This document shows, piece after piece, positions 46,050-48,366 of a DNA stretch of 64,000 nucleotides. Made by a program: the position numbers and the translations under genes. The stretch's first letter is position 1. Every line of letters begins with the position of its first letter. The DNA comes from Thermoproteus sp. (lineage in GTDB: Archaea; Thermoproteota; Thermoprotei; Thermoproteales; Thermoproteaceae). The DNA is taken from contig JAWARJ010000001.1 of assembly GCA_038893495.1 (NCBI GenBank), positions 248,001 through 312,000 on the forward strand, written 5' to 3'. The notes under the pieces were generated by a model, which saw only the letters and a list, made by a program, of their open reading frames with translations, made no database searches and was not told where the DNA came from.

Positions 46050-46844
46050 ATGGACAAAAGATATGTACTACTAACGGCAATGATGGCGGTTGTCTTAGCC
46101 GCATATGTCGCCTACGGCCTGTCTTATATACACGTGGTATCGCGCCCCGCCGTAGTCGTTAAGCACATCAAGGGGGCCGCGTATTCGCTCAACTGGGCTG
46201 GCTATGTGGTCTCCGGCCAGGCTGGCGCTGTGACGAGCGTCGCTGGGTCGTTTGTGGTGCCCAGCCTAACTTGTACGAAACAGACTACCTATGTGGCGCT
46301 GTGGGCTGGGCTCGACGGCTATAACGACAACACTGTGGAACAAGCCGGAATTCTCGGCGAATGTAGCGGCGGGAAGCCGATATACGAGGCTTGGTACGAG
46401 TTCTACCCCTCGCCGTCGGTGCCCATAAGCGGTCTGACCGTCCAGCCGGGAGATAGGGTCTACGTCAACGTGACCTATCTAGGCAACGGACAGTTCGCAA
46501 TAACCATGGTGATATACGAAACCAACGGCAAGGTGGAAAGCTACAGCGTGACGGGCACCGAGCCTAGTGCCCAGCTCTCGTCGGCCGAATGCATCCTCGA
46601 AAGGCCTACTGTCAACGGACAGCTGACGGCGCTGGCCAATTTCGGCACGGCGTACTTCGGGCAGGACTACACCTCGATAGGCGGGACTTGCTACGCCAGA
46701 GTAAACGGCGTCGTGGCCCCCTTCGGCTCCCTCTCGGCTATACAGCTAGTCATGGTCAGCAGTAGCGGCAAGATCCTCGCACAGCCGAGTAGCCTAACCG
46801 GAGACGGGTCGAGCTTCACCGTGACCTTCGTGAACTCGAGATAG
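46050..46844 (+). CDS. Glutamic peptidase, family G1 (eqolisin-like), membrane-anchored
   Basis: 264 residues. N-terminal signal/anchor helix (residues 7-27), then the G1 beta-sandwich: NWAGYV at 48-53, Gln98 in NTVEQAG, WYEFYP at 115-120, and AECILERP (179-186) carrying the catalytic Glu. G1 peptidases use a Gln/Glu pair and work at acid pH. ATG 46050 is ~25 nt from TATA (ATATTTATAAATA). Confidence 0.88.
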   Translation: MDKRYVLLTAMMAVVLAAYVAYGLSYIHVVSRPAVVVKHIKGAAYSLNWAGYVVSGQAGAVTSVAGSFVVPSLTCTKQTTYVALWAGLDGYNDNTVEQAGILGECSGGKPIYEAWYEFYPSPSVPISGLTVQPGDRVYVNVTYLGNGQFAITMVIYETNGKVESYSVTGTEPSAQLSSAECILERPTVNGQLTALANFGTAYFGQDYTSIGGTCYARVNGVVAPFGSLSAIQLVMVSSSGKILAQPSSLTGDGSSFTVTFVNSR

Positions 46845-47735: not shown

Positions 47736-47803
47736 TATAAGTCCTATGGTTCTGGCGGAAAACTGAGTGGGGCCGCCGGGATTTGAACCCGGGGCCTCCC
47801 GGT

Positions 47804-47823
47804 TGCTCGGGCCGGGAGCCCTT
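47804..47823 (-). other. tRNA intron 2 (canonical 37/38 position, 20 nt)
   Basis: Lies one base after the anticodon, between A37 and A38. At 20 nt it is short. Without removing it the 3' half of the anticodon stem (CCGGG) cannot pair. Confidence 0.75.
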
Positions 47824-47831
47824 TATGAGCC

Positions 47832-47874
47832 ATACGCGGGACCGGCCGGGCGTTGCCGGCGGGACTAAGTCCCA
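47832..47874 (-). other. tRNA intron 1 (position 29/30, 43 nt)
   Basis: Non-canonical intron splitting the anticodon stem. It contains a GGGAC/GTCCC hairpin. Boundaries are set by the need to join CCC to GG for a five-pair anticodon stem; a one- or two-base shift is possible. Removal would use the bulge-helix-bulge splicing endonuclease. Confidence 0.75.
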
Positions 47875-47904
47875 GGGCGCTCTACCTAGCTAAGCTACGG
47901 CCCC

Positions 47905-48366
47905 TAAAGGGGAGAACATGCCGGCTTTTAAATTTTTGCCTCAACGTCTGCGACGACATTGAATACTATAGCCTCCTCGACGTTGTGAAGCGCCGTAACC
48001 ATCTAGACTGCGTGATTAGACCTTGGAGTCCGTCGAAGTGGCGATATTACGACGCCATAGTGGTCATCTAGGGCGTTGGGTTCCTTCACAACATGCTGTG
48101 GGCCTTAAAGGTAGGGCCCGTAGGTGAGTACTATGAGTAGTGGGTAGATTGCGCCTACCCCTTACGAGGCCTAGCGCCGCCTTAGCCCTCAAGCCGGCAG
48201 ATTAAATAGACGCAATGGCTTTTTGAGTCGTCTGGTCGTCGTATTTGAACGCCTCTCTTGATAGCTGGCTAAGACGCGGCGGGCTTCTGCCGACACACAG
48301 ATAGACTCAGCCCGCCCGGGCCGCTCTAAATGCGTCTTAGTTTTTAACTCGGGCGTATTCCTTCCT
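47905..48366. other. 462-nt gene-poor region
   Basis: Holds the tRNA promoter at the left end and the SRPBCC promoter (TTTTTAAC, ~48338-48345) at the right. A plus-strand open stretch (47938-48071) has coding-like codons but no start after the tRNA gene. On the minus strand at 48190-48330 a stretch reading SICVSAEARRVLASYQER recalls VapB-type antitoxins, with its continuation in another frame. Both look like remnants. A GGGTAG/CTACCC hairpin lies near 48142. Confidence 0.4.

What the first reader, a model, noticed from the sequence alone, without database searches (positions are those of the whole stretch)
47768..47904. tRNA-Met gene with two introns, one at the non-canonical 29/30 position
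The gene is 137 nt, and only removal of 43 nt at 29/30 plus 20 nt at 37/38 gives a perfect 74-nt cloverleaf. Multiple tRNA introns are known from Thermoproteales (established), but each combination is informative for splicing endonuclease specificity, and the first intron must leave before the canonical BHB can form.
Basis: partly seen in the sequence, partly recalled or inferred. Interest (0 to 1): 0.6.

Follow-up and report, generated by a model that had tools for sequence, protein, structure and literature searches.

The report
Two-intron tRNA gene, likely Ile2
This is an ordinary archaeal tRNA gene interrupted by two short introns, most likely the isoleucine tRNA that reads AUA rather than a methionine tRNA, and following its relatives showed that the methionine tRNA of the same genome appears to be made from two separate gene pieces that must be joined.

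Summary
The gene is real: window 47768-47904, minus strand, 137 nt, with a 43-nt insert at 29/30 and a 20-nt insert at 37/38. The 29/30 intron is old: it sits at the same place in 36 of the 54 CAU/GAU tRNA genes I tabulated from relatives, with a fully paired bulge-helix-bulge central helix in 36 of 36. Intronless orthologues show the joined exons directly. The 37/38 intron is recent: among the six genomes of the genus I found it only in G000, G004 and G005, whose elongator-Met genes, and in two of them Ile-GAU genes, carry near-identical copies.

The label 'tRNA-Met' is probably wrong. The gene shares its acceptor stem, including a 4:69 base-pair flip, with tRNA-Ile(GAU) and not with the elongator-Met gene; the genome encodes TiaS. 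Best call: tRNA-Ile2(CAU).

By base pairing alone the two-intron solution is not unique; orthologues decide it. Multi-intron tRNAs, position 29/30 and ordered removal are in print.

Outside the window, the elongator tRNA-Met of this genome looks split at the same 29/30 point (halves 1.27 kb apart). Two further apparent splits, at 30/31, occur in relatives. I found no report of these; they are the more interesting result. No RNA data were available.

The parts
47875..47904 (-). exon 1, tRNA positions 1-29 (acceptor 5' strand GGGGCCG, D arm, CCC of the anticodon stem)
   Evidence: same exon in orthologues
47832..47874 (-). intron 1, 43 nt, position 29/30; central helix GCGC/GCGU, bulges CC^U and AU^G, inner helix GGGAC/GUCCC
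   Evidence: same position in 36 of 54 tabulated genes
47824..47831 (-). exon 2, GGCTCATA, tRNA positions 30-37 with anticodon CAU
   Evidence: contiguous with exons 1 and 3 in intronless orthologues
47804..47823 (-). intron 2, 20 nt, position 37/38 (cut phase uncertain by one base); relaxed motif: three pairs CUC/GAG plus an A-C mismatch, 3' bulge CA^A
   Evidence: present in Ile2 of G000, G004, G005, absent from Ile2 of G001-G003
47768..47803 (-). exon 3, tRNA positions 38-73 (anticodon stem 3' strand, variable loop, T arm, acceptor 3' strand CGGCCCC, A73)
47926..47937 (-). TATA-like element AAAAATTTAAAA, 22-33 nt upstream of the mature 5' end
   Evidence: A+T peak at -34 to -23 over 29 tRNA genes of the same genome

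Best explanation
A functional tRNA-Ile2 gene (anticodon CAU, read as AUA-specific isoleucine tRNA after TiaS converts C34 to agmatidine) of a Thermoproteus-like archaeon. The precursor is transcribed from its own TATA box. The splicing endonuclease cuts the old 29/30 intron at a bulge-helix-bulge whose exon strand lies in tRNA positions 24-27, so the D stem must be open at that moment; a ligase (RtcB expected) joins the exons. This completes the anticodon stem, which then serves as the outer helix for the second, relaxed motif at 37/38, from which 20 nt are removed. The 29/30 intron was inherited from an ancestor shared with a sister family; the 37/38 intron was acquired in the ancestor of three genomes of the genus by copying among tRNAs with near-identical anticodon arms. 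Shown: gene, exons, conservation, motif pairing, shared intron, TiaS and endonuclease genes. Inferred: transcription, cleavage order, ligation, C34 modification, charging with isoleucine.
For: cmscan hit. 29/30 intron in 36 of 54 tabulated genes; central helix paired in 36 of 36 and inner helix with compensatory changes (first inner pair G-C 34, U-A 2; fourth G-C 27, A-U 7, G-U 2), though the intron side was not used for selection. Eighteen of the 54 genes have neither intron and show the exons joined; in 4 the string GAGCGCCC-GGCTCATA-ACCGGG is identical. Identity: acceptor GGGCCCG in the CAU gene and in Ile-GAU of G001, G002, G003; both change to G4-C69 in G000, G004, G005; the eMet-type genes found in this genus read GCGGGGG. 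The spliced window tRNA matches Ile-GAU of its own genome at 71 of 74 positions, elongator Met at 62 and initiator at 55. TiaS hit 3.4e-27. Endonuclease catalytic subunit matches the solved 2zyz_B at E 7.2e-84. The 20-nt intron is identical in G000 Ile2, G004 eMet, G004 and G005 Ile-GAU.
Against: No RNA reads. The 37/38 motif is weak: the fourth central pair is A-C and the inner helix is displaced. If it is cut at 37/38, four of the eight genes with this intron would carry G38 instead of A38. Minimum-energy folds do not show either full motif spontaneously; imposing one costs about 2.6 to 7.1 kcal/mol. In G020 the Ile-GAU acceptor (GCCCCCG) differs from its GGGCCCG CAU gene, so the acceptor rule is not universal. 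The second endonuclease subunit and RtcB were not searched for.
Confidence: 0.85

Rival explanations
1. It is the elongator tRNA-Met, with the same two introns.
For: Anticodon CAU; anticodon arm and much of the body identical to elongator Met (62 of 74 positions); the genome has three CAU genes and one must be eMet.
Against: The third CAU gene has the acceptor stem GCGGGGG found in the eMet-type genes of relatives; the window gene has the Ile-type stem and co-varies with Ile-GAU at 4:69 across six genomes. The assignment of types rests on acceptor stems and recalled archaeal tRNA identities; no isotype model was run.
Confidence: 0.12
2. It is a decayed or duplicate pseudogene.
For: Two insertions; weak second splicing motif.
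Against: All stems intact, a compensatory double change at 4:69, a TATA-like box in place, and no other Ile-type CAU gene found in this genome.
Confidence: 0.02
3. Other boundaries: one of the other anticodon arms reachable by two excisions, or a single intron.
For: Nine arms with five Watson-Crick pairs exist.
Against: Only the CAU arm matches orthologues with joined exons and a conserved splicing motif; no single excision works.
Confidence: 0.02

Closest known systems
Multi-intron tRNA genes of Thermoproteales with canonical and non-canonical bulge-helix-bulge introns (Sugahara 2008, cited in PMC4090602; PMC8450103; passages read)
   Same: Two introns, one canonical and one at 29/30 (29/30 is listed in PMC4090602), relaxed motifs, archaeal splicing endonuclease.
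   Different: Nothing in kind; this gene is another member.
tRNA intron transposition in Thermoproteales (Fujishima 2010, as described in PMC4090602 and PMC4033280, passages read; original not held)
   Same: Near-identical intron in different tRNA species of the same genomes.
   Different: Here the copies sit in three tRNAs with nearly the same anticodon arm, so ordinary gene conversion would suffice.
Split tRNAs of Nanoarchaeum, Caldivirga, Staphylothermus, Aeropyrum (PMC3218864, passages and section 6 read; PMC4390854 passages)
   Same: The elongator-Met genes of G000 and G005 and the Ile2 gene of G017: two halves, complementary trailer and leader, junction motif at 29/30 or 30/31.
   Different: Different tRNA species; close relatives still have the cis intron at the site, and in G005 and G017 that cis intron remains inside the 5' half.

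Membership tests
archaeal intron-containing tRNA (bulge-helix-bulge) | removal of inserts restores a standard tRNA seen in orthologues | tested here: met
archaeal intron-containing tRNA (bulge-helix-bulge) | 4-bp central helix with 3-nt bulges at the 29/30 site | tested here: met
   no outer pair next to the bulge (A-G mismatch in 36 of 36)
archaeal intron-containing tRNA (bulge-helix-bulge) | 4-bp central helix with 3-nt bulges at the 37/38 site | tested here: inconclusive
   three pairs plus A-C; 3' bulge fits, 5' side does not
archaeal intron-containing tRNA (bulge-helix-bulge) | splicing endonuclease encoded | tested here: met
   catalytic subunit; second subunit not tested
archaeal intron-containing tRNA (bulge-helix-bulge) | introns absent from mature RNA | not testable with these tools
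   no RNA data
tRNA-Ile2(CAU) | CAU anticodon on an isoleucine-type body | tested here: met
   71 of 74 to Ile-GAU of the same genome against 62 to eMet; shared 4:69 change
tRNA-Ile2(CAU) | TiaS encoded | tested here: met
tRNA-Ile2(CAU) | agmatidine at C34 and charging with Ile | not testable with these tools
   needs RNA
elongator tRNA-Met | body of the eMet type seen in relatives | tested here: not met
   that body belongs to the gene at G000:C1:460297-461657
split tRNA (for the G000 eMet gene outside the window) | halves apart, own promoter-like box for each, complementary trailer and leader, junction motif | tested here: met
   the promoter test is a TATA-like match only
split tRNA (for the G000 eMet gene outside the window) | two separate transcripts joined in trans | not testable with these tools
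   needs RNA

The most novel reading that the evidence does not exclude
In Thermoproteaceae the ancestral 29/30 intron of the CAU tRNAs is a breakpoint from which trans-spliced tRNA genes arise repeatedly. Elongator tRNA-Met of the window's genome was split inside that intron (junction 29/30, an antisense MFS gene between the halves), while the eMet of Thermoproteus sp. CP80 (G005) and the Ile2 of G017 were split separately at 30/31, one base downstream, keeping the old cis intron in the 5' half, so that one tRNA needs both cis- and trans-splicing one nucleotide apart. The intact cis gene in the sister genome G004 shows the before state.
Probability: 0.7. Interest if true: 0.6.

Novelty: new member of a known kind. 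Interest (0 to 1): 0.4.

Why it matters
The window gene mainly corrects an identity (Ile2, not Met) and adds a dated case: an old intron and a recent one in the same tRNA. Its relatives matter more. Whether split tRNA genes are ancient or derived has been debated; a genus in which the same tRNA is cis-spliced in one species and apparently trans-spliced in its sisters, at the site of a shared intron, makes the derived route testable by RNA sequencing of a few strains.

Tried and rejected
Rejected: tRNA-Met identity (acceptor stem and covariation); pseudogene; single-intron fold; the idea that the 43-nt insert is two adjacent introns (no internal 3' site of the GCGY-AN-G type seen by eye, while adjacent introns do exist in G017 eMet); the idea that the tRNA 3' end is duplicated in the window as an integration scar (one match only). 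A whole-genome tRNA search with the Rfam model did not list the window gene itself among its 36 hits, so that list is incomplete and was not used for counts of absence. G003 gave no eMet gene by either half pattern; its assembly is in many contigs and I did not pursue it.

Rows dropped before counts: the table keeps only genes that fit one regular expression; it loses genes with T-arm or other introns (for example L037, L041, L146), the split genes (L085, L087, L045 with L144), G017 eMet (L084) and G009 eMet (L080). The Ile-GAU genes L177, L178 and L200-L202 were fetched after that table was made and are not in it. All of these were read by eye.

Full report
Observation. The window holds one tRNA gene by covariance model, at 47768-47904 on the minus strand (45.1 bits, E 2.3e-06). 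It is G000:C1:295768-295904 of a 1,995,394-base single-contig genome. The sequence divides as 30 + 43 + 8 + 20 + 36 nt; the spliced 74-mer is a standard cloverleaf with anticodon CAU. A TATA-like stretch lies 22-33 nt upstream, where 29 other tRNA genes of this genome have their A+T peak.

Uniqueness. Pairing alone does not single out this solution: nine different five-pair anticodon arms can be made by two excisions, none by one. Comparison settles it. Exon patterns were run over 61 genomes, and 54 CAU or GAU genes that fit one regular expression were tabulated (genes with other introns or split genes fell out and were read by eye). Thirty-six of 54 carry an intron at 29/30 (33 CAU, 3 GAU), 18 carry neither intron, and the exon junctions in those 18 are the ones predicted for the window gene. 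The 29/30 intron occurs in both families f1 and f2, so it predates the genus.

Motif at 29/30. In 36 of 36 genes the exon bases 24-27 pair with intron bases -6 to -3 (GCGC with GCGU, once GCGC), with bulges YC^N and AN^G. The first four inner pairs form in 36 of 36 and the fifth in 34 of 36, with two-sided changes. The outer position 23:31 is an A-G mismatch in 36 of 36, so this is a motif without a proper outer helix. Its formation opens the D stem.

Motif at 37/38. Three pairs (32-34 with GAG) and an A-C mismatch, 3' bulge CA^A, outer helix the anticodon stem. In the full precursor only 30-31 and a U-G form the outer helix. Constrained ensemble energies relative to the unconstrained ensemble, 37 C and 80 C: 29/30 motif in the precursor 2.9 and 2.6 kcal/mol; 37/38 motif with outer helix in the precursor 7.1 and 6.0; the same after removal of the first intron 5.5 and 3.5; 29/30 motif after removal of the second intron 6.7 and 2.8. 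This favours 29/30 first, weakly. PMC8450103 states that some close introns must go in order (passage).

History of the 20-nt intron. Within the genus it is in G000, G004 and G005, not in Ile2 or eMet of G001 and G002 or in Ile2 of G003. It occurs in Ile2 of all three, in eMet of all three, and in Ile-GAU of G004 and G005; four of these eight copies are identical (G000 Ile2, G004 eMet, G004 and G005 Ile-GAU) and the rest differ by one or two bases. In G001 the Ile-GAU gene has a related 18-nt intron, and in G000 the Ile-GAU gene has a different 16-nt one. In G005 the three genes also share 3' flank, which points to copying at DNA level. Elsewhere in G000 the 17-base intron core occurs without mismatch only in the two CAU genes. 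If the cut is at 37/38, four of eight genes would have G38; if at 38/39, all keep A38. For the window gene the product is the same.

Identity. Three CAU genes were found in G000: an initiator at C1:1501644-1501741 (A1 and a GGG/CCC stem; initiator features recalled), the window gene, and a third. CAU genes in relatives fall into two kinds by acceptor stem: GGGCCCG, as in most Ile-GAU genes, and GCGGGGG, GCGGCGG or GCCGCCG. In G001, G002 and G003 Ile-GAU and the first kind both read GGGCCCG; in G000, G004 and G005 both carry G4-C69 instead of C4-G69 (the G004 Ile-GAU gene has C at position 1). The exception found is G020, where Ile-GAU is GCCCCCG. The window tRNA is 71 of 74 identical to Ile-GAU of its genome, 62 to eMet, 55 to initiator. 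TiaS is encoded. I therefore call it tRNA-Ile2(CAU). The tRNAscan-SE authors describe the same three-way problem for CAU genes (PMC8450103, passage).

Machinery. One endonuclease catalytic subunit (182 aa; E 6.1e-26 to PF01974, E 7.2e-84 to 2zyz_B, annotated in the PDB as tRNA-splicing endonuclease). PMC4731332 (passages) reports for T. tenax 48 introns in 46 tRNAs, a heterotetrameric endonuclease with relaxed recognition, and cleavage of a non-tRNA motif by the recombinant enzyme.

Beyond the window: split tRNAs. The third CAU gene of G000 has its 5' half (GCGGGGG ... GAGCGCCC) at C1:460297-460327 and its 3' half at about C1:461594-461657 on the same strand, with a 427-aa MFS_1 gene on the opposite strand between them. 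No other eMet-type 5' half (up to three mismatches) and no other exact eMet 3' end was found in G000. Trailer and leader share an 11-bp perfect complement; duplex energy -44.2 kcal/mol, reached by 0 of 300 mononucleotide shuffles. The junction motif is the ancestral 29/30 one (GCGC/GCGU), the trailer starts with 15 bases that differ by one from the cis intron of G004 eMet, and each half has a TATA-like box. In G005 the anticodon loop lies 766 nt from the start of the 5' half; the old 20-nt intron is intact in the 5' half with its own motif, and the trans junction is at 30/31 with four central pairs; duplex -56.6, 0 of 300. In G017 the Ile2 gene has the same arrangement at 30/31, halves on two contigs; duplex -44.8, 2 of 300. 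G004 eMet is an intact cis gene with both introns. Since junctions and inserts differ, I read G000 and G005 as separate events.

Names. G005 corresponds to Thermoproteus sp. CP80 (the pattern lies at base 1176 of the locus from NZ_LCWM02000032.1, where the same exon lies in G005:C14).

Literature. Position 29/30 introns, multi-intron tRNAs, intron transposition, split tRNAs at 29/30 (Caldivirga tRNA-Ala) and 30/31 (Staphylothermus, Nanoarchaeum tRNA-Lys), and resemblance of split flanks to introns of relatives are in print (PMC4090602, PMC4033280, PMC4390854, PMC3218864; passages, and section 6 of PMC3218864). Searches for split or trans-spliced tRNAs with Thermoproteus, archaea or tRNA-Met showed no title or abstract describing these genes, and the passages read (PMC3218864, PMC8450103, PMC4090602, PMC4033280, PMC4390854, PMC3293823) do not mention them; the other listed papers were seen only in the listing, the library is partial, and GtRNAdb was not available.

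Verdict. The window gene is a new member of a known kind, with a corrected identity. The apparent splits in the same genome and in relatives are the part worth following.

Noticed in passing
L123:1798-3158 (G000:C1:460297-461657), outside the window: Elongator tRNA-Met of the same genome appears split at 29/30, halves 1.27 kb apart with an antisense MFS transporter gene between them.
   Followed up: partly
L124:1448-2276 (G005:C13): Elongator tRNA-Met of Thermoproteus sp. CP80 appears split at 30/31 while its 5' half keeps a complete cis intron at 29/30.
   Followed up: partly
L128 and L144 (G017:C100 and C13): tRNA-Ile2 of the same-family genome G017 appears split at 30/31, with a 29/30 intron in the 5' half and a T-arm insert in the 3' half.
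   Followed up: partly
L084 (G017:C89:48692 onward): eMet gene with two adjacent introns at 29/30 and 30/31, separated by a single exon base.
   Followed up: partly
L201 (G000:C1:884324-884432, minus): tRNA-Ile(GAU) of the same genome has introns at 30/31 (19 nt) and 37/38 (16 nt), the second unlike the copy in its sister genomes.
   Followed up: partly
L047, L124, L200 (G005): Ile2, eMet and Ile-GAU genes of G005 share similar 3' flanking sequence as well as the 37/38 intron.
   Followed up: no
window 46050-46844 (+): 264-aa protein with a Peptidase_A4 domain, E 1.4e-32, close to the tRNA gene.
   Followed up: no
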